Positions 5,495-15,680 of a stretch of 15,680 bases of DNA are shown here, in pieces (position 1 is the stretch's first letter; each line of letters starts with the position of its first letter). The notes beneath the pieces were generated by a model. That model was not told where the DNA came from and ran no database searches. It saw only the letters and a list, made by a program, of their open reading frames with translations. The translations under genes were made by a program, and so were the position numbers. Source of the DNA: Candidatus Odyssella thessalonicensis (GTDB lineage: Bacteria; Pseudomonadota; Alphaproteobacteria; Bin65); the NCBI GenBank assembly GCA_005240015.1, contig SBBV01000304.1, forward strand, positions 1-15,680. Reading direction: 5' to 3'.

Positions 5495-6343
5495 TCAGGC
5501 GGCGGCGCGCGGGCGGTAGGTCTTGAGATAGCCGAGCCGATCGATGACGCCGCCCGGCAGGCGGTTCATGAAGCGCTCGAACACCTGCACATCCTCGGCG
5601 GTGACGAGGGTGGCGCCGCGCCCCGCCGCGGCGTTGGTGTTCTTGACGGGCACGTGCGTGAGCGGAGTGTGCGCAAGACCGAGCGCGCGGAAGACGGCGG
5701 CCATGCTTTCGGCATGATTGAGGTCGCGCGTCGGGACCTCGACCGCGTGCGTGACCTGGCCGGAATCGCGCAGCGCAAGGTAGCGCAGATACATCTCGCA
5801 CCAGGCCCAGAGATAGAGCTCGCCCTTGCCGAGCGTCTTGGGGTCCAGGCGCAGATGATTGCGCGCCGCGTCGGTCGGCGGATTGTCCTTCCAGAAATTC
5901 TTGTCGCGATTGAGGAAGCTGCGCATGTTGAGCAGCGGATCGCGCAGCAGGATCACGAGGTCGAAGCGCGGCACGAGCCGCGCGAAGCCGATGTGGAGCC
6001 CGCGCGCGAAGAATTTGCTCACGTCGACATAGATGCTCTTGCCGGCGCGCGCGAGCCAGCGCTCGGCCATCGCCAGGCGCTTGCCCGCCACGCGCTCGAT
6101 ATAGGCGTCATCGCCGGCGACGAACGCGCGCAGCACGCGCCCGCGCCCCAACAGCTCGTCGGTCTCGATGAAGCGCCGGCGGAAGTGGCGCTCGAGGTCG
6201 CCCAAGGCACCCGGCAGCCGGGTGCGCGCATGCGGCTGCTCGAACGCCGCATAGGCCTCGGGCACGTGGCGATTGACCCAGTCGGCGAACGAGGCTTGGC
6301 CGCAGCGGCCGGTCGCCACGGTGAAGATGTAGCGTTCGGCCAT
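5495..6343 (-). CDS. Sulfotransferase-like protein (divergent PAPS-binding P-loop)
   Basis: 282 residues. The N-terminus has a strand then a P-loop-like motif, TVATGRCGQASFADW (about residues 8-22), in the position of the 5'-phosphosulfate-binding loop of PAPS sulfotransferases. LVILLRDPLLNMRSFLNRD (about 130-148) matches the 3'-phosphate-binding block RDPxxxxxS of the same superfamily. YVDVSKFFARGL (about 106-117) fits the segment in between. It would transfer sulfate from PAPS to a sugar hydroxyl or amine. The loop reads GRCGQASF where many relatives have GRSGTTF/L, so it is a divergent member and the substrate is unknown. No PAPS-forming genes are in the window. The ATG at 6343 lies four bases after the stop of the GT-A gene, behind a purine-rich AAAGAAA stretch that may serve as ribosome-binding site. 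Confidence 0.75.
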   Translation of the reverse strand: MAERYIFTVATGRCGQASFADWVNRHVPEAYAAFEQPHARTRLPGALGDLERHFRRRFIETDELLGRGRVLRAFVAGDDAYIERVAGKRLAMAERWLARAGKSIYVDVSKFFARGLHIGFARLVPRFDLVILLRDPLLNMRSFLNRDKNFWKDNPPTDAARNHLRLDPKTLGKGELYLWAWCEMYLRYLALRDSGQVTHAVEVPTRDLNHAESMAAVFRALGLAHTPLTHVPVKNTNAAAGRGATLVTAEDVQVFERFMNRLPGGVIDRLGYLKTYRPRAAA

Positions 6344-7068: not shown

Positions 7069-8649
7069 TTAGGCGGCGCCGGCGGTGAGGCGGCGGAAAT
7101 AGCCGGGATCGGCCTCGCGCGGCGCTTCGTTGATGGCGGCGGCAAGCGCGCCGGCATCGACGCGGAGGCGATTCTGCGCATCGGCGCGCACCGGCACGAT
7201 GCGGCACCGCGCCTCGATCGCCGGCCGCACCGCGGGGTTGATGGCGTAGAAGCGATCGATCAGCACCACGGGCCGGCGCGTGCAGAGCGCCTCGACGAAG
7301 GTGGTCGAGGTCGGCGCGTCGAACAGAAAGACATCGGCGTCGTCGAGATGCTCCTCGAAGCGGCGGTAGGAGGTGGACGCCAGCGCCTCGATCGGATTGA
7401 GTTTGCCGACAAAGTGCCCTTCCGGATGCGGCTTGCAGAGGAGATCGATGTCGAGCTTTTGGAGCTGCTCGACGAGATGCATCTGGAAATCCCAGTACAC
7501 CACGTCGGGCAGGCCGGCGAGCGGAAATTGGCGCAGGCCGCGATACGGGTGGCCGACATAGATCACGCGCTTGCGCGCGCCGGTGGGCGCGGTGGAATCG
7601 CGGAAGCAGCGGCGGAACAGCGGCTCGCCGCCTTCGCCGACGATCTCGACGCCGTTGACGAGCGCGGCCAGGGCCGCCGCCTCGGTGGCGGCGAGGAGCC
7701 GCGCCATTTCCCGCGTGGCCATGTGAAAGCGCGACGCCGTGCTCAGCTCGATGAGAGCTGTGGAACCCGGAAGCTGCGCCACGGCCGTGGCTCCGCCGTG
7801 GTCGAACACATCGACCTCGCCGCCGCGCCGGCGCAGTTCGGCCGCGACCACGCGCGTCGCATAGGCGCCGTTGGTGCCGCTCCAGATGCGCTTCGGCAGC
7901 CGCGCGCCGTGCAGAGCCGCCACATCCGCCGCCACGCGGGCCAGGGCATTGCCGAGGCGCGCGCGGAACGCTTCGCGCAGCCGCTGGCGATAGGTTTCTC
8001 CGAGTTCCGGGACGAGCGGCAGCAAGGCGTCGAGCGCTCGGTCGACGAGGTTCGCCGCGTCGCGCGCCGCCGGCGCTCCGCGGCTGCGCGCGTCGGAAAC
8101 GACGTTGGCGGCGTGGCGGTAGGCGATGCGCCGCCGCGCGGCCGCTTGGCGCAGCAGATGATTGTGGCTGACGGCGATCGCCTCGGGCGCTGCGAGCGCG
8201 AGCGGCAGCCGCCACGCCGGCGTCCAGGTTGCCGCGCGCGCGATTCCGCGCAGAAACGCAAGCGGCGCCGGCTTCACGCCGAAGGGCCCGCGATATTCGA
8301 GCGGCTTGAAGCCGCGGCTGCCGGCGGCGAGCAGCGGCATTTCCGGCGGCCCGCCGCGCAGCTCGAGGCCGAGCTTGCTCGCCCGCTCGCACGCCCACGC
8401 CGACTCGACCAACGACATGAAGCCGTTGCCGAAGAGGCCGGCGGCCACGATCGCGATCTGGCGCTCGTCCGGATCCGCCAGCGACCCGGCGAAGCCCAGG
8501 ATCGCGCCCGGAACGCGCGCGCCCACGGCGACCATCTCGGCCTGCGCCAGCGGCCAATGGAGTCTTTCCCGCCAATCCGCGATGCGCGCGACATCGTCGT
8601 AGACGAACGGCGCGATCCCGCTCTTCACGTCTGCGGCCGCCACGTTCAT
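7069..8649 (-). CDS. Putative GT-B-like transferase of unrecognised family (capsule/teichoic-type motifs)
   Basis: 526 residues; I do not recognise a named family over the full length. The C-terminal half resembles KpsS/TagF-like GT-B transferases: FDHGG (about residues 282-286) where those proteins have a conserved HG, KRVIYVGHPYRG (about 360-371) as the strand opening the second Rossmann domain, LLCKPHPEGH (about 403-412) and FDAPTSTTFVEALCTRRPVV (about 443-462), which follows the PSS..EA..xxxP nucleotide-binding pattern. The N-terminal 250 residues, including SHNHLLRQ (about 161-168), are less familiar. It starts with ATGA over the stop of the third oxidoreductase and is the first transferase-like gene after the CMP-nonulosonate genes. 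That makes it a candidate nonulosonate (sialyl-like) transferase, but a Kdo, phospho-polyol or other transferase is equally possible. Confidence 0.65.
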   Translation of the reverse strand: MNVAAADVKSGIAPFVYDDVARIADWRERLHWPLAQAEMVAVGARVPGAILGFAGSLADPDERQIAIVAAGLFGNGFMSLVESAWACERASKLGLELRGGPPEMPLLAAGSRGFKPLEYRGPFGVKPAPLAFLRGIARAATWTPAWRLPLALAAPEAIAVSHNHLLRQAAARRRIAYRHAANVVSDARSRGAPAARDAANLVDRALDALLPLVPELGETYRQRLREAFRARLGNALARVAADVAALHGARLPKRIWSGTNGAYATRVVAAELRRRGGEVDVFDHGGATAVAQLPGSTALIELSTASRFHMATREMARLLAATEAAALAALVNGVEIVGEGGEPLFRRCFRDSTAPTGARKRVIYVGHPYRGLRQFPLAGLPDVVYWDFQMHLVEQLQKLDIDLLCKPHPEGHFVGKLNPIEALASTSYRRFEEHLDDADVFLFDAPTSTTFVEALCTRRPVVLIDRFYAINPAVRPAIEARCRIVPVRADAQNRLRVDAGALAAAINEAPREADPGYFRRLTAGAA

Positions 8650-9635
8650 GCGCGCGCCCGCTGCGCCGGCGCCTCGAGCGCGATCGCGCGGCCGCCGGTG
8701 CCCGCGAGAATCTGCGCATAGGCGGCCATCCGCTCGGCATGCACCTCGATCGGCAGCAGCGCCTCGGCTCCCTCGCCGCCGAGGAATGCCGACAATTGCC
8801 GGAACAGGCCGGGCTTGAACCGCGTGTCGAGGTCGTCGGCAGGCGCGACGCCCTCCACCGTCATCTGCCCGACCCGCTGGAGGCGCAGCTCCTCGAGCGG
8901 CTGCAGGAAAAGGCGGTGCTTGCGCGTCACGATCTCGACGCCCCAGCGGCCCGGGCCGGTCCAGTCGGCGTGGTAGCTGAAGATGGCGCCGTCACGCGTG
9001 CGGCCCGCACCGGCAAAGATCGCGCCCGCCGGATGCCAGTCGAGCGCGCCGCCGACTTCGGCGGCGAGCGAAGCCGGCGCGCCGGCGAGAAAGAAGGCCA
9101 GGTCGAGTACGTGAGTCGAATTGGCGAAGAACCAATGCGGCTTGATCTCGGGCGCGATCGCGGCGCCGGCGATGTAGCCCGCGCGTTCGGTGAACTCGAA
9201 ACGGCACGACGTGGCGCCGCCGTCGGCCGCGATGATCTCGCGCGCACACCGCACGGAAGCGTAGTAGCGCCGATTGTAGGCGACGAAAACGCGGGCGCGG
9301 GCGCGCGCCGCTTCGGCGGCCAGCGCGCTTGCTCCCGCGGGAGTCATCGCCGCCGGTTTCTCGACCAGGATTTCGCGCACGCCGCGGCGGATCAGCATCC
9401 GGGTCGTTTCCTCGAGGCTCGGCACGTCGACGGCGACGATGGCACGCCGCGGCCTCTCGGCGAGCGCCGCCTCGATGCCGCCGATGCGCGGCTCGACGCC
9501 GATCTCGGCGGCGAACTGCCTTGCCGACGCGGCGCCGCGTCCGTAGACCGCGAAAGGCACGCCCATCGCCTGCAGCACCTTGGCGTGCGCGCGCGCCATG
9601 GCGCCGCAGCCGACCAAGGCGAGCGGCGCGCTCAT
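8646..9635 (-). CDS. Gfo/Idh/MocA-family oxidoreductase (third of three)
   Basis: 329 residues, a typical length. The NAD(P)-binding Rossmann motif is LVGCGAMARAHAKVL (about residues 7-21), the EKP motif of the family is intact (ILVEKPAAM, 89-97) with its catalytic lysine, and ANSTHVLDLAFFLAG (about 171-185) supplies the active-site His in the C-terminal sheet domain. Enzymes of this family oxidise or reduce sugar or sugar-nucleotide hydroxyls, often at C3, sometimes as part of an epimerisation or deoxygenation. The starting ATG at 9635 overlaps the TGA of the second oxidoreductase, and the stop overlaps the ATG of the GT-B-like gene. It clearly differs in sequence from its two companions, which argues against a recent tandem duplication. 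The substrate is unknown; a nonulosonate, its CMP form or a separate UDP-sugar are all possible. Confidence 0.87.
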   Translation of the reverse strand: MSAPLALVGCGAMARAHAKVLQAMGVPFAVYGRGAASARQFAAEIGVEPRIGGIEAALAERPRRAIVAVDVPSLEETTRMLIRRGVREILVEKPAAMTPAGASALAAEAARARARVFVAYNRRYYASVRCAREIIAADGGATSCRFEFTERAGYIAGAAIAPEIKPHWFFANSTHVLDLAFFLAGAPASLAAEVGGALDWHPAGAIFAGAGRTRDGAIFSYHADWTGPGRWGVEIVTRKHRLFLQPLEELRLQRVGQMTVEGVAPADDLDTRFKPGLFRQLSAFLGGEGAEALLPIEVHAERMAAYAQILAGTGGRAIALEAPAQRARA

Positions 9636-10606
9636 GTGATCGGGCATGCCGCGCGCGCCCCGTCCGCGCCGAACCAGTGGCGATTGTAGACGGCGAGGAG
9701 ATTCAAATGATCCTTTGCCGACTCCTCGAGCGTCGGCAGCACCGATGTGCCGCGCTCGAGGATTTCCCCGTAAGCCTCGGTCATGGCGCTCACGTCGAGG
9801 CCCTCGAAATCGGCCTCGCGCCAGGCCCAGCCGGTTTCGGCCGACGCGCACCACGCCTTGCGCTCGACCTCGCGCACGATCCAGTGCAGCTCCGGCGTGA
9901 AGAACTGGATCACGAATGGCAGCTTGCTCGTGCGATGCGAAGCGAGCGTCACGCGCCGCCCTTCCGCGCCGGCGCCGCGCAGAATGCCGGAGAGCTCGCG
10001 GAACTCGGCGCGGCGGCTGGCCATCGGTTCGCGGTCGATGCCGCTGCCGTCGTAGTCCGAGACATGCACGCCGGTGAGATAGGCATAGATGTCGATGTAG
10101 TGGATGGCGTTCGAGGCGAGCCGGAAATCCGGCCCCAGCGCCTGCATCTCGAGCCGGCGGTCGCCGGCGAGCTGCCGCTTGAGCGCCTGATAGCCGGGCC
10201 AGGCACGGCGCACGAGATTGACCCAGCAGCGCGCGCTGGATGCCGCGAGACGCTCGCCGACCGCGGCGTAATCGTCGGCGCGCTGGAACAGGAATTTCTC
10301 GAGGACGAGATGGCGCACGCGGGCACGTTCCAGCAGCGCTTCCACGGTCGCCCGCCGCGTATCGGCGCACGTCGCCACCAATGCCAGATCGATCGTATCG
10401 GGCAACGACCGAATCCGGTCGCCGTAGACGATCCGGGCCCGCGCGACCGAGCCAAGCTCCGCGACTCGCTCGCGTGCCCGCGCCAGCGCCGTCGGGACCG
10501 GATCGATCGCATGGATCGTGGCCGGCCGATCGAGCCTGGCGAGCGCCTGGAGCACACGGCTGCCGATGTTGCCGCAGCCGATCACGGCGATCGCGGACTC
10601 GGTCAT
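9632..10606 (-). CDS. Gfo/Idh/MocA-like oxidoreductase with altered EKP motif (second of three)
   Basis: 324 residues. IAVIGCGNIGSRVLQAL (about residues 5-21) is a clear Rossmann dinucleotide loop. LVATCADTRRATVEALLERA (about 76-95) and LVLEKFLFQ (about 100-108) align with the family, but the EKP signature reads EKF: the catalytic Lys (about 104) stays and the Pro is replaced by Phe. SNAIHYIDIYAYLTG (about 165-179) matches the family's active-site His block. The C-terminal half (QFFTPELHWIVREVERK, about 234-250; WAWREADFEG, about 260-269) is unlike ordinary sugar dehydrogenases. It lies directly behind neuA with an ATGA overlap, so it probably acts on the same sugar or an immediate derivative. 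The product may be an oxidised, reduced or epimerised sugar; the reaction is not inferable. Confidence 0.83.
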   Translation of the reverse strand: MTESAIAVIGCGNIGSRVLQALARLDRPATIHAIDPVPTALARARERVAELGSVARARIVYGDRIRSLPDTIDLALVATCADTRRATVEALLERARVRHLVLEKFLFQRADDYAAVGERLAASSARCWVNLVRRAWPGYQALKRQLAGDRRLEMQALGPDFRLASNAIHYIDIYAYLTGVHVSDYDGSGIDREPMASRRAEFRELSGILRGAGAEGRRVTLASHRTSKLPFVIQFFTPELHWIVREVERKAWCASAETGWAWREADFEGLDVSAMTEAYGEILERGTSVLPTLEESAKDHLNLLAVYNRHWFGADGARAACPIT

Positions 10607-11313
10607 GCCGCGTGTGCCCCGCTGCTCATGCGCTGCATCAGGAACTCGACGAGCGCAAAATCGAGCTCGGTGTCGATGTCGAGCGAGCGCTCGCGCGGCA
10701 TCTCGAACAGCTTGGTCTCGGGCATGAGCACGCTGTCCGAGGCGAAGAAGGTCGCGCGCGGCCACACGTAGATCGAGGCGTTGCAGTCGTAGCAGGCCGG
10801 CGAATCCTGCCGCCGCACGATGCCGGTCCCGGGCTTCGACAGCTGCACGAAGCCCGCCGGCGTCGCCTCGACGAGATTGAAATAGGGCGAGCGGTGCGCC
10901 GGGCAGCCGGTGATGACGTTGCTGCAGCCGCCCGACTCCTGCAGCGCCACCGCGCCGGCGATGTCCTCGATCGTGCGCAGCGGCGCCGTCGCGTCGAGAT
11001 CGACCATGAGGTCGAAGGCCATGCCGGTCCTCTGCTCGACCGTCGTCACGCAATGCTGGATCGCGGGCAGCTTCGCGGCCCGATCGCTTGCCATCGCGTC
11101 GGGACGCTTGACGAGGTGCTCGACCCCCGCGCGGCCGGCGACGGCGAGGATTTCGTCGGAATCGCTGCTGACGGCGAGCGTCGCGAACAGCCCGCTGCGA
11201 CGCGCCTGCTCGATCGAATGCACGATCAGCGGCTTGCCCAGGAGTGGGCGGATGTTCTTGTTGGGCACGCCCTTGGAGCCGCCGCGGGCGCAGATCGTGC
11301 AGAGGCGCAGCAT
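10603..11313 (-). CDS. neuA: CMP-nonulosonate (N-acylneuraminate/legionaminate-type) cytidylyltransferase
   Basis: 236 residues, the usual length of single-domain NeuA/LegF enzymes. The CTP-binding signature ARGGSKGVPNKN is at 9-20, followed by LLGKPLIVHSI (about 24-34). RPDAMASDRAAK (70-81), DLDATAPLR (105-113, where many NeuA proteins have LLQPTSPLR), CNASIYVWPR (about 177-186) and DIDTELDF (212-219, metal and sugar binding) complete the family pattern. It converts CTP and a nonulosonic acid to the CMP-sugar, the activated donor for transferases, in the cytoplasm. The ATG at 11313 was chosen because the CTP loop begins a few residues later; the open frame continues 68 codons upstream, but inside the previous gene. 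It sits 16 bases behind one oxidoreductase gene and overlaps the next by ATGA. Substrate specificity (Neu5Ac, legionaminic acid or a variant) is not certain. Confidence 0.9.
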   Translation of the reverse strand: MLRLCTICARGGSKGVPNKNIRPLLGKPLIVHSIEQARRSGLFATLAVSSDSDEILAVAGRAGVEHLVKRPDAMASDRAAKLPAIQHCVTTVEQRTGMAFDLMVDLDATAPLRTIEDIAGAVALQESGGCSNVITGCPAHRSPYFNLVEATPAGFVQLSKPGTGIVRRQDSPACYDCNASIYVWPRATFFASDSVLMPETKLFEMPRERSLDIDTELDFALVEFLMQRMSSGAHAA

Positions 11314-11329
11314 CAGGCGGCAGGCCCCG

Positions 11330-12253
11330 TCATGCGGCCTCGAGCCAGCGCTTCTCGGCCGCCGCGCGCTCGACGGCGTCGATGAGGCGCAGCACGGCGT
11401 AGCCCTCGGCGTAGGTGCAGGCGGCACCCGGGCGCCCCGAGAGAATGGCAGCGTGCTGGCGGCGATAGCTCTCCTCGCGCTCCACCTCGATGCGCTCGGG
11501 AGTCTTGCCGTCGCCATGCGAGAAAGTGCTGGTGAAGAACTCCACCGCCGCCGAATCGTCGCGCGCGTTCACGGCGATCTGCCGGCGCGGCGCATGGTCG
11601 ATATAGGAGAGTGTCACGCTCACCTGCGGGCAGCGCTCGCATTCGATGAGGATGCTCCAGCGGTCGTCGGCATCGATGCCGAGCGCGCCGCTGGCTCCGC
11701 CCAGCGCGGTCACGCGCCGCCACGGGCCGAACAGCCAGAGCGCGTAGTCGAGCTCGTGCGAGAGATCGCGCAGCACGCCGCCGCCCAGCGCCTTCTGCGA
11801 CGAATAGGAAAGGCGGAAGTCGCGCTGCGGCCGCCACGTCGCGAGGTGCTGGCCGACATGGATCGACGCCGCCACCAGCGCGCGGCCGTCGATCCAATCG
11901 CGCAGCTGCAGCAGCAGCGGGTGGAAGCGCAGATTGTAGGCGACGTAGACGCCCGCCGCGGCGCGTTCGTCGTCCGCGGTGACGTCGTGAAACAGCGGCT
12001 TTTCGACCAGCACCGTGCCGCCGAAGCCCTGCGCCTCGAGCGCACGGAAGGTCAGGCGATGCAGCGACGTTTCGTTCGCGATTACGGCGTAGTCGGGCCG
12101 GAATTCTGTCAGCGCCGCCCCGAGTTCGCGATAGGGCCGACGGTGCTCGATATCGCGCCGGCTCACCACCGCGACCTCGTGGCCGAGGCCCTCGAGCACG
12201 CGCACGTGGCGCTGGCCGATCGAGCCGTAGCCGATGACGAGCGCGCGGGTCAT
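11330..12253 (-). CDS. Gfo/Idh/MocA-family oxidoreductase (first of three)
   Basis: 307 residues. LVIGYGSIGQRHVRVL (about residues 5-20) is the Rossmann loop, GTVLVEKPLF (about 79-88) holds the intact EKP motif, VYVAYNLRFHP (about 102-112) is the following conserved strand, and LGGGVLRDLSHELDYALWLFG (about 156-176) gives the conserved Asp and His of the C-terminal domain. All features expected of an active NAD(P)-dependent sugar oxidoreductase are present. The ATG at 12253 overlaps the neuD-like stop as ATGA; a longer frame upstream is a shadow within that gene. Its place between the neuD-like and neuA-like genes ties it to nonulosonate formation. It may modify the precursor before CMP activation or supply another sugar nucleotide; oxidoreductases of this family also make 3-keto intermediates for amino-uronic acids (WbpB/WlbA type), but no partner aminotransferase is visible here. 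Confidence 0.9.
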   Translation of the reverse strand: MTRALVIGYGSIGQRHVRVLEGLGHEVAVVSRRDIEHRRPYRELGAALTEFRPDYAVIANETSLHRLTFRALEAQGFGGTVLVEKPLFHDVTADDERAAAGVYVAYNLRFHPLLLQLRDWIDGRALVAASIHVGQHLATWRPQRDFRLSYSSQKALGGGVLRDLSHELDYALWLFGPWRRVTALGGASGALGIDADDRWSILIECERCPQVSVTLSYIDHAPRRQIAVNARDDSAAVEFFTSTFSHGDGKTPERIEVEREESYRRQHAAILSGRPGAACTYAEGYAVLRLIDAVERAAAEKRWLEAA

Positions 12254-12900
12254 CCGCCGGTTCGCTCGGGCAAGGTGCGGCTCGCCGGCGTCACGAGCCG
12301 CGTCTCGTCGGGCACGTCGCGCGTGACCACGGCGCCGGCGCCGATCAGGCAGTTGCGCCCGAGCTTCACCGACTGGATCACCGCCGCCGCGACGCCGATA
12401 TGCGTGCCGTCGCCGACCACGACGCCGCCCGAGAGCGTGGCGCCGGGCGCGATGTGCACGTGGTCGCCGATGCGGCAATCATGATCGACGCGCGCGCCGG
12501 TGTTAACGATCGCGTCGCGCCCCACCGCCGTGCCGGACTGGATGATGGCGCCGGCCATGATCTGGGCGCCCTCGTCGAGCGTCACGTCGTCGGCGACGAT
12601 CGCCGCGGGGTGCACGACCGCGGCGAAGCGGTAGCCGCGCCGGCTGAACGTCTCGAACACGTGGCGCCGCGCCTGGGTCGACTGGGTCGAGCCCACGCCG
12701 TTGACGAGATCGACCTGGGCCGGCGCGTAGGCGGCCACCGCCTCGTCGTCGCCGAGCACCGCGATGCCGAACGGACCGGCGCTGCCCTGGGGCAAGGCCG
12801 GATCGCAAATGCCGAGCATCGAGACGCCGCGGCGGCGCAGCGCATCCATCACCACGCGCGCGTGGCCGCCGCCGCCGATCACGATGACGGGCTTGGTCAT
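12250..12900 (-). CDS. neuD: NeuD/PglD-type sugar acetyltransferase (left-handed beta-helix)
   Basis: 216 residues, the normal size for the NeuD/PglD group. The N-terminal Rossmann-like sugar-nucleotide domain opens with VIVIGGGGHARVVMDAL (about 5-21). From about residue 95 onward hexapeptide repeats form a left-handed beta-helix (IVADDVTLDEGAQIMAGAII, then IGDHVHIAPGATLSGGVVVG), with NTGARVDHDC (133-142) carrying the His-Asp catalytic pair. Members use acetyl-CoA to acetylate either a 4-amino group on a UDP-sugar (PglD) or a sialic acid hydroxyl (NeuD-type in sialic acid loci). Which applies is open: next to neuB it might supply the second N-acetyl group of a di-N-acetylated (legionaminic-type) nonulosonate. 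The ATG forms ATGA with the neuB stop, and its own stop forms ATGA with the next gene. Confidence 0.9.
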   Translation of the reverse strand: MTKPVIVIGGGGHARVVMDALRRRGVSMLGICDPALPQGSAGPFGIAVLGDDEAVAAYAPAQVDLVNGVGSTQSTQARRHVFETFSRRGYRFAAVVHPAAIVADDVTLDEGAQIMAGAIIQSGTAVGRDAIVNTGARVDHDCRIGDHVHIAPGATLSGGVVVGDGTHIGVAAAVIQSVKLGRNCLIGAGAVVTRDVPDETRLVTPASRTLPERTGG

Positions 12901-13979
12901 GCCTCGAGCTGCTCGTCCTTGGCGAAGTCGCGCTTGGCGCGCGTGCCGATCAGCGACCAGGCGAGCATCGGCGAGAGCCCGCCGCCAGGCCGCTTGGCGT
13001 CGATCATCACCGCGTCGAACACTTCGCCTTGCCGGATCGCGCGCGCGGCCACGAGACTGCGTCGTGCGATTGGAATGTTCGGAGCCTCGGACGGCGTCGG
13101 CGCCTTCTCGGGCGAACCCAGCGCCTCCGACGCCGCGCGGATGCCGTCGACCATCGCCTTGAGATCAGCGGGCTCCAGCGACGCGCGGTGGTCGGGGCCC
13201 GGCAGCGTGCGATCGAGCGTGAAGTGCTTTTCGATGGCGACCGCACCCAGCGCCGCGGCGGCGATCGGCACCGCAATGCCCTCGGTGTGATCCGAATAGC
13301 CGACCGGCAGGCCGAAGCGCTCGCGCATCGTCGCCATGGCGCGCAGGTTCACGTCGGCGAGCGGCGCCGGGTATTCGGTAGTGCAGTGGAGCAGGGTCAC
13401 CTTCTCCGTGAGCGCCGCACGCCCCGCCGCCGTGGCGTAAGCCGCGCGACACTTTTCGAGCGACGGCAGCTCGTTGGCCCGCGTGAGGCCGAACGCGATC
13501 ACGCCGAGCGCCGTCTCGATCTCGTCGAGCGTGCTCATGCCGGTCGAGACGATCAGCGGTAGCCCAGTGCGCGCGGCCTCGATCAGCAGCAGCGCATTGG
13601 TGATCTCGCCCGAAGGCACCTTCAAGCGCTTCAAGCCGATGTCGTTGCCGGCGAGGAAGCGCAGCGAATCGAGATCGAACGGCGTCGACATGAACTCGAT
13701 GTTGCGGGCGGCGGCGTGCGCGGCGAGCCGGCGGAACACGTCATCGCCGAGCTCGAGCTTCCGGATCATGTCGATCTGCGAGCCACTCTCGCCGGTGTTG
13801 GCCGCCTGATAGGCCGCCTTGGGCGCGGCCGCGGTCACCACCTTGTCGGTGCGGAAGGTCTGGAACTTCACCGCATCGGCGCCCGCCTCGGCGGCGGCAT
13901 CGATCAGCCGGAACGCCATCTCGGGCGAGCCGTTGTGGTTCACCCCGGCTTCGGCAATGACGAACACGCGCTCAGCCAC
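12897..13979 (-). CDS. neuB: Nonulosonic acid synthase (NeuB/LegI-type)
   Basis: 360 residues: a TIM-barrel synthase domain followed by a C-terminal antifreeze-like SAF domain, as in NeuB and LegI. It condenses phosphoenolpyruvate with a six-carbon amino sugar (ManNAc or 2,4-diacetamido-2,4,6-trideoxymannose) to the nine-carbon acid. Visible motifs: EAGVNHNG (10-17), VKFQTF (37-42), KVPSGEITN (120-128), LHCTTEYPAP (197-206), GYSDHTEG (227-234), EKHFTLD (250-256) and GPDHRASL (261-268), which hold the PEP, metal and sugar contacts. The SAF domain includes RRSLVAARAIRQGEVF (306-321) and KRPGGGLSP (329-337). The start is GTG at 13979-13977, supported by the GAGGTG Shine-Dalgarno match just upstream and an 8-base overlap with neuC. 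The family is certain; the choice between neuraminate and legionaminate is not. Confidence 0.94.
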   Translation of the reverse strand: MAERVFVIAEAGVNHNGSPEMAFRLIDAAAEAGADAVKFQTFRTDKVVTAAAPKAAYQAANTGESGSQIDMIRKLELGDDVFRRLAAHAAARNIEFMSTPFDLDSLRFLAGNDIGLKRLKVPSGEITNALLLIEAARTGLPLIVSTGMSTLDEIETALGVIAFGLTRANELPSLEKCRAAYATAAGRAALTEKVTLLHCTTEYPAPLADVNLRAMATMRERFGLPVGYSDHTEGIAVPIAAAALGAVAIEKHFTLDRTLPGPDHRASLEPADLKAMVDGIRAASEALGSPEKAPTPSEAPNIPIARRSLVAARAIRQGEVFDAVMIDAKRPGGGLSPMLAWSLIGTRAKRDFAKDEQLEA

Positions 13980-15153
13980 GCGCCACCTCGAGATCGCGGA
14001 AGGACTTCCGCAACAGCGCTCTGGGGTCGCCCATGCGTTTCAGGATGCCGACGATGCGCTCGGCGGCATGGCCGTCCCCATACGGGTTGGCCACTCTGCC
14101 GATGCGCATCGCGAAGGCCTTGGCGATGGCGCGGCGGATCGCTCCCGCCTCGACCGGGCAATCGATCACCGTCCTGGCGCGAAGGCGCCCGGCCTGGCGG
14201 CTGCCGATGTTGACCGCCGGCTTCTTGAGCGATGGCGCCTCGAGCAGCCCCGATGAGGAATTCCCGACGACGGCATCGCAAACCGCCATCGCGCTCAAGT
14301 AGCGCCTGTGGCCCAGCGACGCGAAAGCTGCCGCGTTGGCATGACCCCTGACGAACTTGTCGAGCATCGCGATGAGCGCGCGGCCTTCCGGATCCGCATT
14401 GGGCTTCGTGAAAAGCAGGCCGACGTCAGGGCCGAGTGCCGCCAGCGCCTCGAGCAGCACCGCGAATTGCCGCGTCGACGGCGCGCGGTCGAGCGTCACC
14501 GGATGAAATGTGACGAGCAGATTGCGCTTCCTAAAGCCGAAGCCGAGATCGCGCTCGAGCGCGCCGCGCGGCAGGAGCTTCATCGTGCGCAAGCTGTCAA
14601 GCCCGGGATCGCCCACGGCGAAGACCCGGCGCGGCTCCTCGCCCATCTGGCGCACCCGCCCCGCCGATTCTTTCGATGCGGTGAAATGCAAGTGCGCCAT
14701 CTTGGTGATCGCGTGCCGGATCGCGTCGTCGAACGCGCCCTCGGTGACGTCGCCGCCCGACAGGTGGGCAATGGGAATGCCCATGACGAGCGCCGTGCTC
14801 GCGGCCGCCAGCGCCTCGAAGCGGTCGCCGAGCAGCATGACGAGATCCGGGGCCAGGCGCCGGTACGCGCCGACGAAGCCGACCATGCCGATACCCATCG
14901 ATTTGGCGGCGGCGGCGGGCGTGTCGCCGGGCTGCAGCATGCGCACCTTGGCGTCGATGCGGAAGCCGTCGGCTTCAATCTCGCGATAGGTGAAGCCGAA
15001 TTCCGGCGCCAGATGCATCGCCGAAGCGACGACGCTGAGATCGAAGGCGCGATCGCGTTTCAGCGCCGCCATCACCGCGCGCAGCAGGCCGTACTCGGCG
15101 CGCGTGCCTGTGACGACGCAGACGCGCAAAGGCTTACGCGCTCGCCCTGCCAT
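13972..15153 (-). CDS. neuC: UDP-HexNAc hydrolysing 2-epimerase (NeuC/LegG-type)
   Basis: 393 residues, typical of the hydrolysing epimerases that turn UDP-GlcNAc into ManNAc (NeuC), or the 2,4-diacetamido analogue into its manno form (LegG), releasing UDP. The N-terminal half begins VCVVTGTRAEYGLL (about 11-24), then DLVMLLGDRFEALAAA (about 103-118) and HLSGGDVTEGAFDDAIRHAI (about 130-149), the family's most conserved block. The C-terminal Rossmann half has LLVTFHPVT (212-220), VVGNSSSGLLEAP (295-307) and NPYGDGHAAERI (356-367), which contact UDP. The ATG at 15153 was chosen because homology starts right after it; open frame continues upstream only inside the GNAT gene, which overlaps the start by 20 bases. 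The product is the substrate of the neuB-type gene that follows. Confidence 0.92.
   Translation of the reverse strand: MAGRARKPLRVCVVTGTRAEYGLLRAVMAALKRDRAFDLSVVASAMHLAPEFGFTYREIEADGFRIDAKVRMLQPGDTPAAAAKSMGIGMVGFVGAYRRLAPDLVMLLGDRFEALAAASTALVMGIPIAHLSGGDVTEGAFDDAIRHAITKMAHLHFTASKESAGRVRQMGEEPRRVFAVGDPGLDSLRTMKLLPRGALERDLGFGFRKRNLLVTFHPVTLDRAPSTRQFAVLLEALAALGPDVGLLFTKPNADPEGRALIAMLDKFVRGHANAAAFASLGHRRYLSAMAVCDAVVGNSSSGLLEAPSLKKPAVNIGSRQAGRLRARTVIDCPVEAGAIRRAIAKAFAMRIGRVANPYGDGHAAERIVGILKRMGDPRALLRKSFRDLEVARG
13984..13989 (-). promoter_or_regulatory. Shine-Dalgarno site for the neuB GTG start
   Basis: On the minus strand GAGGTG lies four bases before the GTG codon at 13979-13977. It is inside the last codons of neuC (encoding Glu-Val of the C-terminus) and supports both the GTG start and translational coupling of neuB to neuC. 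It is one of few recognisable ribosome-binding sites in this run; most other starts appear to depend on overlap with the preceding stop. Confidence 0.6.
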
Positions 15154-15680
15154 CGTAGACCCAGCAATATTGCCGAATCGGGCCATTGCCGAACGGCATG
15201 TCGTAGGTGCGCGCGGCCTTGCCTTCGTCGCGACGAAAGCCGGCGGCCTCGAACGCGCGCACGCCAGCCACGTTCTCGGCGAAGAGCCAGCAGCGGATCT
15301 CGTTCTTGGCACCGCCCGCCCGGATCAGCGCCATCACCTGGCGGAGCAGGTTGCTGCCGAGCCCGCGGCCCGTTTCGCGCGCGCTGATGCCGACGGTGAT
15401 CTCCACACCGTCGGCGAGATCGTCGACATAGGTGTAGCCGAGCACCTGGCCTTCGTACTCGGCGAAATAGACCCGGCGCGTGCTGCCCGGCGCGTGCTGC
15501 GCCGCGAACCACCCGCTCATGCGGTGCCACTCCGGCGGGCGGTCGTGGCCGGACCACACGATATTGTCGACGTCGCATTTCAAGCGGAAGAAATCGGCGA
15601 AATCGGCCGGCGTCGCGCGCCGCAGCGTGATCGGTTTCGAGCCGATCTCGGGCGCGGCCGGGAAACGGTAGGAAAGGAAG
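15134..15680 (-). CDS. GNAT-family acetyltransferase, N-terminus outside window
   Basis: About 181 residues are visible and the frame is open to the right edge, so the start is not seen; a TTG at 15583 is in frame, but conserved sequence extends before it, so it is not the true start. The visible part begins with a short leader, then ITLRRATPADFADFFRL, the usual first strand and helix of a GNAT domain. DNIVWSGHDRPPEW follows, then RRVYFAEYEGQVLGYTYVDD, the acetyl-CoA loop RETGRGLGSNLL, and the C-terminal NVAGVRAFEAAGFRRDEGK block. It transfers an acyl group, probably to an amino sugar. Its position directly before the neuC-type gene (20-base overlap) makes it a candidate for the 4-N-acetylation step of a legionaminic-type pathway (LegH role), but it could also acylate a different sugar. 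Whether more domains lie upstream cannot be known from this window. Confidence 0.85.
   Translation of the reverse strand, partial: FLSYRFPAAPEIGSKPITLRRATPADFADFFRLKCDVDNIVWSGHDRPPEWHRMSGWFAAQHAPGSTRRVYFAEYEGQVLGYTYVDDLADGVEITVGISARETGRGLGSNLLRQVMALIRAGGAKNEIRCWLFAENVAGVRAFEAAGFRRDEGKAARTYDMPFGNGPIRQYCWVYDGRASA

What the first reader, a model, noticed from the sequence alone, without database searches (positions are those of the whole stretch)
8646..12253. Three different Gfo/Idh/MocA oxidoreductases interleaved with neuA in a nonulosonic acid gene run
Seen: genes at 11330-12253, 9632-10606 and 8646-9635 each have a Rossmann loop and an EKP-like motif but little mutual similarity, and neuA (10603-11313) lies between the first and second. 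Known: standard Neu5Ac and legionaminic pathways need NeuC/B/A-type enzymes plus a dehydratase and aminotransferase, not three dehydrogenases. Inference: the set may make an unusual nonulosonic acid (for example epimerised, deoxy or keto at one position) or a second, uncommon donor sugar for the same glycan. This is the best candidate here for an undescribed sugar pathway.
Basis: partly seen in the sequence, partly recalled or inferred. Interest (0 to 1): 0.72.

Follow-up and report, generated by a model that had tools for sequence, protein, structure and literature searches.

The report
Legionaminic-type sugar operon, extra dehydrogenase pair
This is part of a bacterial gene set for a sialic-acid-like surface sugar; one of its three dehydrogenases is a usual companion of such sets, while the other two form a widely conserved but so far unassigned pair that probably changes the shape of that sugar.

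Summary
In detail: three Gfo/Idh/MocA-type proteins lie around neuA in one tightly coupled operon. They are not an odd trio. ox1 resembles the PtmF-type oxidoreductase that sits before the CMP-transferase in legionaminic-acid (Leg) type clusters of E. coli and Plesiomonas. ox2 and ox3 are a separate two-gene module. A scan with ox2 gave 80 loci; ox3 is adjacent in 72 of 80, and the families recurring most with the pair are Leg-type nonulosonate genes. The commonest order is PtmE-PtmF-NeuA-PtmA-ox2-ox3 (14 loci); the window lacks PtmE and PtmA. In reverse, 7 of 398 genomes have ox3; an ox2-like gene is next to it in 6 (three weakly scored) and 5.5 kb away in one. LegC and a LegB-like gene lie elsewhere in the same genome, so the sugar is probably Leg-type, not Neu5Ac. 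Best reading: ox1 with NeuA goes with an epimerised Leg, and ox2-ox3 oxidise and re-reduce another centre; the carbon is not shown (C4 is my guess). I found no paper assigning the pair (open-access library only).

The parts
15134..15679 (-). GNAT acetyltransferase, open at the contig edge
   Evidence: Pfam Acetyltransf_3/_1; window is G000:C11:1-15680
13972..15150 (-). NeuC/LegG-type hydrolysing NDP-sugar 2-epimerase (start codon chosen by me)
   Evidence: TIGR03568 441 bits over cut-off 235.9
12897..13979 (-). NeuB/LegI nonulosonate synthase
   Evidence: TIGR03569 463.6 bits over cut-off 399.65; PF03102
12250..12900 (-). NeuD/LegH-type sugar acetyltransferase
   Evidence: TIGR03570 221 bits over cut-off 160.8
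11330..12253 (-). ox1, PtmF-type Gfo/Idh/MocA oxidoreductase
   Evidence: PF01408, PF22725, PF02894; 44% to the protein at the same place in CP099622, 30-32% to the Gfo protein of two E. coli Leg-type clusters
10603..11313 (-). NeuA/LegF CMP-nonulosonate transferase, in the part of the NeuA tree that goes with PtmF
   Evidence: PF02348; tree of 57 NeuA
9632..10606 (-). ox2, first member of the conserved redox pair
   Evidence: PF01408; family of 80 loci; E103, K104, H169, H300 invariant in alignment A2
8646..9635 (-). ox3, second member of the pair
7069..8649 (-). 526-aa protein of no known family, coupled to ox3; perhaps a glycosyltransferase (my guess; the gene after ox3 in Vibrio hepatarius is of a polysialyltransferase family)
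   Evidence: no Pfam/NCBIfam hit; best PDB hit E 0.89; L089 neighbour PF07388; 4-nt overlap

Best explanation
The window carries most of a Leg-type nonulosonate operon of a surface polysaccharide. NeuC, NeuB and NeuD build the nine-carbon acid from a LegB/LegC-made precursor. ox1 is the PtmF-type oxidoreductase whose work is tied to the CMP-transferase NeuA: the sugar that NeuA activates is probably an epimerised Leg (8-epi-Leg is the best guess). ox2 and ox3 are a second, separable module: two different Gfo/Idh/MocA enzymes, probably a complex or a relay, that oxidise one hydroxyl of the nonulosonate (free or CMP-bound) to a ketone and reduce it again, giving an epimer (or leaving a keto or otherwise altered centre). 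Shown: homology, operon structure, conserved order, co-occurrence, conserved catalytic-type residues. Inferred: the substrate, the epimerisation, the carbon (C4 for ox2-ox3 is a guess), the order of steps.
For: ox1 matches the PtmF place and is similar in sequence. PtmF and PtmA co-occur (33 both, 4 and 4 single, 39 neither of 80 loci, Fisher 1e-13). PtmF-NeuA has the highest distance correlation of the 36 gene pairs compared (r 0.87, 27 loci), and on a tree of 57 NeuA one side of a 98/97-supported branch holds 30 of 35 rows with PtmF (window, E. coli O61 and ECZP248 among them) and the other 18 of 22 without it (E. coli O161 among them); 6 label changes against 18.3 in shuffles, 0 of 500 as low. 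E. coli O61 has PtmF and PtmA; in O161 no frame matches either. I recall O61 as 8-epi-Leg and O161 as Leg. ElaA, a putative oxidoreductase, serves 8-epi-Leg in A. baumannii, and EpaA (cytidylyltransferase + aldo-keto reductase) with EpaB (short-chain dehydrogenase) 8-epimerise Pse by NMR. ox2-ox3: adjacent in 72 of 80 loci, from 18 named phyla, two loci archaeal. Reverse search: 7 of 398 genomes have ox3 (E 1e-30 or better); an ox2-like frame adjoins it in 6, clearly in 3 (own genome, G535, G405; 144 bits or more) and weakly in 3 (37-48 bits), and lies 5.5 kb away in G107 (119 bits). Of 55 loci of 18 kb or more, NeuB lies in 51; no other sugar pathway recurred. In 18 of 50 long loci with NeuB, ox2 and ox3 the pair occurs with neither PtmF nor PtmA, and once as its own unit divergent from the Leg operon, so it is separable. 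LegC (TIGR04181 510 bits, cut-off 420) is in the same genome. Precedent: RgNanOx, a Gfo/Idh/MocA enzyme, oxidises and re-reduces C4 of a nonulosonate ring.
Confidence: 0.55

Rival explanations
1. PtmF (ox1) works early, in making the GDP-sugar precursor, and only ox2-ox3 act late.
For: The Plesiomonas paper places ptmA in the GDP-GlcNAc segment of the Campylobacter pathway.
Against: Distance correlation of PtmF is highest with NeuA (r 0.87), lower with PtmE (0.63); NeuA grouping follows PtmF presence; Leg-type clusters without PtmF exist (E. coli O161; 18 of 50 long loci have neither PtmF nor PtmA).
Confidence: 0.25
2. ox2-ox3 make a second, non-nonulosonate donor sugar or act on another residue of the glycan.
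For: The fold matches of ox3 include NDP-sugar and free-sugar dehydrogenases; the window also holds a deacetylase-like and other polysaccharide genes.
Against: In 83 loci the recurrent partners are ox3 77, NeuB 64, NeuC 61, NeuA 61, PtmE 57, LegC 55; very diverse families could be missed by that clustering.
Confidence: 0.2
3. Plain Neu5Ac operon with unrelated dehydrogenases beside it.
For: NeuB and NeuC pass the N-acetylneuraminate models; the same product names stand on NeuB and NeuC of E. coli clusters with LegB and LegC.
Against: LegC over cut-off and a LegB-like gene in the same genome; Leg genes around the pair elsewhere.
Confidence: 0.05
4. The pair has lost catalysis and serves as a structural or regulatory partner.
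For: ox2 lacks the proline of EKP and ends in a conserved tetrapeptide, as if its tail were bound.
Against: Glu-Lys and a histidine are invariant in both alignments, nucleotide-loop glycines invariant or nearly so.
Confidence: 0.05

Closest known systems
PtmF / WeiH-type oxidoreductase of Leg-type clusters (P. shigelloides, C. coli, E. coli)
   Same: ox1: family, place between NeuD and NeuA, 30-44% identity to proteins at that place
   Different: no PtmE before it and no PtmA after NeuA in the window
A. baumannii elaABC, aciABCD and phage epaAB nonulosonate epimerisation modules (PMC9676051, PMC5595891, PMC12053666; passages read)
   Same: extra redox genes that change the configuration of Leg or Pse; EpaA holds a CMP-transferase domain
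RgNanOx / YjhC (PMC7535918; passages read)
   Same: Gfo/Idh/MocA enzyme with transient oxidation at C4 of a nonulosonate; both are among the fold matches of ox3
   Different: catabolic, acts on 2,7-anhydro-Neu5Ac; 13-14% identity to ox3 in the structural alignment
WlbA / GnnA UDP-sugar 3-dehydrogenases
   Different: other substrates (UDP-GlcNAcA, UDP-GlcNAc), from the entries' titles

Membership tests
Gfo/Idh/MocA oxidoreductases | N-terminal PF01408 Rossmann domain over cut-off | tested here: met
   ox1 26.2, ox2 32.4, ox3 45.6 bits, cut-off 24
Gfo/Idh/MocA oxidoreductases | catalytic-type Glu-Lys(-Pro) and downstream His | tested here: met
   invariant E-K and a His in A2, A3 and A4; Pro absent in ox2 (EKF); ox2's His lies inside the scan pattern
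Gfo/Idh/MocA oxidoreductases | two-domain fold | tested here: met
PtmF-type oxidoreductase | sequence kinship to the oxidoreductase at the PtmF place of Leg-type clusters | tested here: met
   44% over 277 aa (E 2e-74) to CP099622; 30% (E 2e-26) and 32% (E 7e-24) to E. coli O61 and ECZP248; PtmF of Campylobacter or Plesiomonas itself was not at hand
PtmF-type oxidoreductase | place just before NeuA | tested here: met
   commonest order in 80 loci
PtmF-type oxidoreductase | PtmA partner (usual, not strictly defining) | tested here: inconclusive
   none found in the operon; a generic SDR on C23; genome 74% complete
Legionaminic acid pathway | NeuC/LegG and NeuB/LegI | tested here: met
Legionaminic acid pathway | LegC aminotransferase in the genome | tested here: met
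   C542, TIGR04181 510 bits, cut-off 420
Legionaminic acid pathway | LegB dehydratase in the genome | tested here: inconclusive
   C330, 49% to a LegB, TIGR04180 408 bits, cut-off 475
Known epimerisation modules (Ela/Aci/Epa) | sequence homology to Ela, Aci or Epa proteins | not tested
   their sequences were not in reach
Known epimerisation modules (Ela/Aci/Epa) | changed configuration of the nonulosonate | not testable with these tools
   needs NMR or mass spectrometry
NanOx | 2,7-anhydro-Neu5Ac activity | not testable with these tools
   needs an assay; the genomic context of the pair is biosynthetic

The most novel reading that the evidence does not exclude
ox2-ox3 is an undescribed two-enzyme epimerase of Leg-type nonulosonic acids, spread over at least 18 phyla incl. 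archaea, that makes an isomer whose genes have never been assigned (4-epi-Leg, known from Shewanella japonica and non-1 Legionella lipopolysaccharides, or a new isomer), acting together with the PtmF-NeuA step so that this operon makes a doubly changed Leg.
Probability: 0.35. Interest if true: 0.72.

Novelty: new variant of a known kind. Interest (0 to 1): 0.5.

Why it matters
Nonulosonic acids shape flagella, capsules and O-antigens, and their stereoisomers decide how phages and hosts see a cell. As far as I know, genes are assigned for only part of the known isomers. A conserved, portable gene pair that goes with Leg synthesis in many phyla gives a direct test of which isomer it makes, and would sharpen prediction of surface sugars from genomes.

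Tried and rejected
Neu5Ac reading: held unlikely for the LegC and LegB-like genes in the genome. Second donor sugar: weakened by the neighbourhood clustering. ox2-ox3 as the 8-epimerase itself: less likely, because E. coli O61 (recalled as 8-epi-Leg) shows no ox2-ox3 in its locus and the pair coexists with PtmF-PtmA in many loci. ox2-ox3 in E. coli: a Vibrio NeuA-ox2-ox3 DNA query matched 9 of 5426 genomes, over 81 bases at the PtmE end, not in the pair. Prevalence by ox2: of 289 genomes of the class, 26 match the profile at 1e-3 but only 3 (own, G025, G107) better than 1e-40; the rest are 1e-13 or weaker and look like other family members. C4 as the site: only a lead. 4-epi-Leg is reported in S. 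japonica KMM 3601 and non-1 L. pneumophila (PMC3210612, passages), and the Sg6/Sg12 O-antigen locus has two neighbouring 'dehydrogenase' genes poorly matched in Sg1 (PMC3694923, passages and section 10 part 1), but I could not see their sequences, that locus looks otherwise different (PseG-like gene), and PMC3766260 (passages) uses the talo name for the Leg intermediate itself. Contig-end overlap with the window: one search covered C542 and C527 whole but not the last 1,586 bases of C330 and 198 of C23; repeated with all four whole, no overlap of 15 bases or more. Distance correlation: ox2-ox3 (r 0.64) is not higher than ox2-NeuB (0.71), so it does not show that the pair travels apart from NeuB. 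The NeuA tree took 52 of the 59 loci with a NeuA hit (length 190-330 aa) plus five added rows (window, three E. coli, CP099622) and has several long branches. PDB sequence searches gave weak, generic or no matches. The ox3 fold list ranks many sugar dehydrogenases together and names no substrate. An ox2 model failed. Papers or searches of no use here.
Full report
What is there. The window is contig 11 (1-15680) of a 3.52-Mb, 624-contig genome bin, 74% complete. On the minus strand, from the contig edge inward, the genes are a GNAT acetyltransferase, NeuC, NeuB, NeuD, ox1, NeuA, ox2, ox3 and a 526-aa protein of no family, followed by further polysaccharide-type genes. From NeuC to the 526-aa gene every junction overlaps by 4 to 8 nt except ox1/NeuA (16-nt gap), so this looks like one translationally coupled operon. 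All three ox proteins pass the Gfo/Idh/MocA domain cut-off and are only distantly alike.

ox1. In the Leg cluster of Plesiomonas shigelloides the order is LegG-LegI-LegH-PtmE-PtmF-LegF-PtmA, with PtmF called an oxidoreductase and with matches in V. fischeri, E. coli (WeiH) and C. coli (PMC4481668, passages). The same order is annotated in E. coli ECZP248, in FDAARGOS_1277 and in an E. coli with O61 wzx/wzy, where the PtmF place is a Gfo/Idh/MocA protein; I name it PtmF by that place. ox1 is 30-32% identical to the ECZP248 and O61 proteins and 44% to the protein at that place on a Sphingomonadaceae plasmid. So one of the three dehydrogenases is an expected member of such clusters.

ox2-ox3. ox2 had 25 proteins at E 1e-3 in the large protein search, of 8000 candidates scored. 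A profile scan of named genomes confirmed 120 relatives, of which the best 80 loci were kept. By phmmer best hit, ox3 is adjacent on the same strand in 72 of 80 (68 after ox2, 4 before it), present but apart in 2, and not found in 6, two of which end within 2 bases of ox2. 78 of the 80 loci have a named phylum, 18 phyla in all, and two loci are archaeal. In the 55 loci of at least 18 kb, NeuB occurs in 51, NeuC 48, LegB 45, NeuA 45, LegC 44, PtmE 44, NeuD 39, PtmF 30, PtmA 29; best hits from 25 bits up were counted, so LegB and LegC include some other sugar dehydratases and aminotransferases. An unguided clustering of all frames in 83 loci found no other family in more than 24 loci; at least the largest of these is a frame antisense to LegB and LegC, and very diverse families could be missed. 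The commonest order before the pair is PtmE-PtmF-NeuA-PtmA-ox2-ox3 (14 loci). The window shows this order without PtmE and PtmA. A reverse test with ox3 on 398 genomes of the phylum gave 7 with a match at 1e-30 or better. In the own genome, G535 and G405 ox2 is next to it and clear (144 bits or more); in G559, G479 and G648 the neighbour's best match is ox2 but weak (37-48 bits, ox3 itself 79-99); in G107 ox2 (119 bits) lies about 5.5 kb away on the other strand. Six of the seven have NeuB within about 10 kb; G648 shows only NeuA, LegC and weak NeuD matches. By ox2, 3 of 289 genomes of the class match better than 1e-40, and none of the other 10 genomes of the order has it, which suggests gain by transfer. 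In 18 of 50 long loci the pair goes with neither PtmF nor PtmA, and in one class relative it is a separate unit divergent from LegB-LegC-NeuC-NeuB-NeuD-PtmE-NeuA. The pair is thus a module of its own, tied to Leg-type synthesis.

The sugar. LegC (over its curated cut-off) and a LegB-like dehydratase (under it) lie on contigs C542 and C330 of the same genome, a PtmE-like nucleotidyltransferase on C527. None of these ends overlaps the window, so their being in the same locus is not shown. They make a Leg-type diamino nonulosonate far likelier than Neu5Ac.

What ox1 does. PtmF and PtmA co-occur (33/4/4/39 of 80; 28 of 29 clear PtmF loci have PtmA). Of the 36 pairs of genes compared, PtmF and NeuA show the most similar divergence (r 0.87). 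On a tree of 57 NeuA proteins (52 of 59 loci with NeuA, plus five added rows) the label 'PtmF in the locus' needs 6 changes against a shuffled mean of 18.3 (0 of 500 as low); the window and E. coli O61 fall in the PtmF-linked part (30 of 35 rows), E. coli O161 in the other (18 of 22 without PtmF; its four exceptions are weak PtmF calls of 44-76 bits). The root is by midpoint, for drawing only. No frame of the O161 locus matches PtmF or PtmA. From memory, not read here, O61 antigen holds 8-epi-Leg and O161 Leg. In A. baumannii, lgaABCDEF plus elaABC is assigned to 8-epi-Leg and ElaA is a putative oxidoreductase (PMC9676051, passages), and EpaA-EpaB were shown by NMR to 8-epimerise Pse (PMC12053666, abstract and passages). 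I infer that PtmF, with PtmA where present, changes the configuration of the sugar that NeuA activates. Against this stands the published placing of PtmA in the GDP-sugar segment, Leg reported from species with PtmF and PtmA, and the lack of PtmA in the window.

Known or new. The kind of thing, a redox add-on module of a nonulosonate pathway, is known from Acinetobacter. This Gfo/Idh/MocA pair is not described in what I could read; the searches were in an open-access library, plus passages of 14 papers, so a description in a subscription journal is possible. [quoted passage not shown]

Verdict. The finding is real, one of its three dehydrogenases is ordinary, and the other two point to a widely conserved, unassigned sugar-tailoring pair that is directly testable.

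Noticed in passing
window 9632-10606 and 80 homologues: ox2 homologues end in a conserved tetrapeptide at the exact C-terminus: CPIT in 43 of 80, Pro-[Ile/Val/Leu]-Thr in 59 of 80. Purpose unknown.
   Followed up: partly
protein P0177; L014:9132-9995; L035:13178-13846: An ox3 homologue of 558 aa carries a GDSL/SGNH hydrolase domain as well (PF13472), and a GDSL-type gene family recurs in 16 of 83 ox2 loci.
   Followed up: no
window 7069-8649: 526-aa protein without any family match, coupled to ox3; the gene after ox3 in Vibrio hepatarius is of a polysialyltransferase family (PF07388).
   Followed up: partly
   Followed up: no
L128 (own contig C542): LegC is followed by a 344-aa protein without a family and an Acetyltransf_6/FemAB-like gene; E. 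coli O161 also has a FemAB-family gene after LegC.
   Followed up: no
L019, L035, L112 and others: PtmG-HisH-HisF-like acetamidino genes stand downstream of ox2-ox3; their families recur in 10-12 of 83 loci.
   Followed up: partly
L140 (own contig C23): A PtmA-like short-chain dehydrogenase lies beside a GNAT gene related to the window's GNAT at 15134-15679; could be the missing PtmA or a generic enzyme.
   Followed up: partly
window 5495-6343: Protein with no Pfam or NCBIfam hit that looks to me like a sulfotransferase by eye.
   Followed up: no
L110 (E. coli ECZP248): The PtmA-like gene is split into two frames, while it is one frame in FDAARGOS_1277.
   Followed up: no
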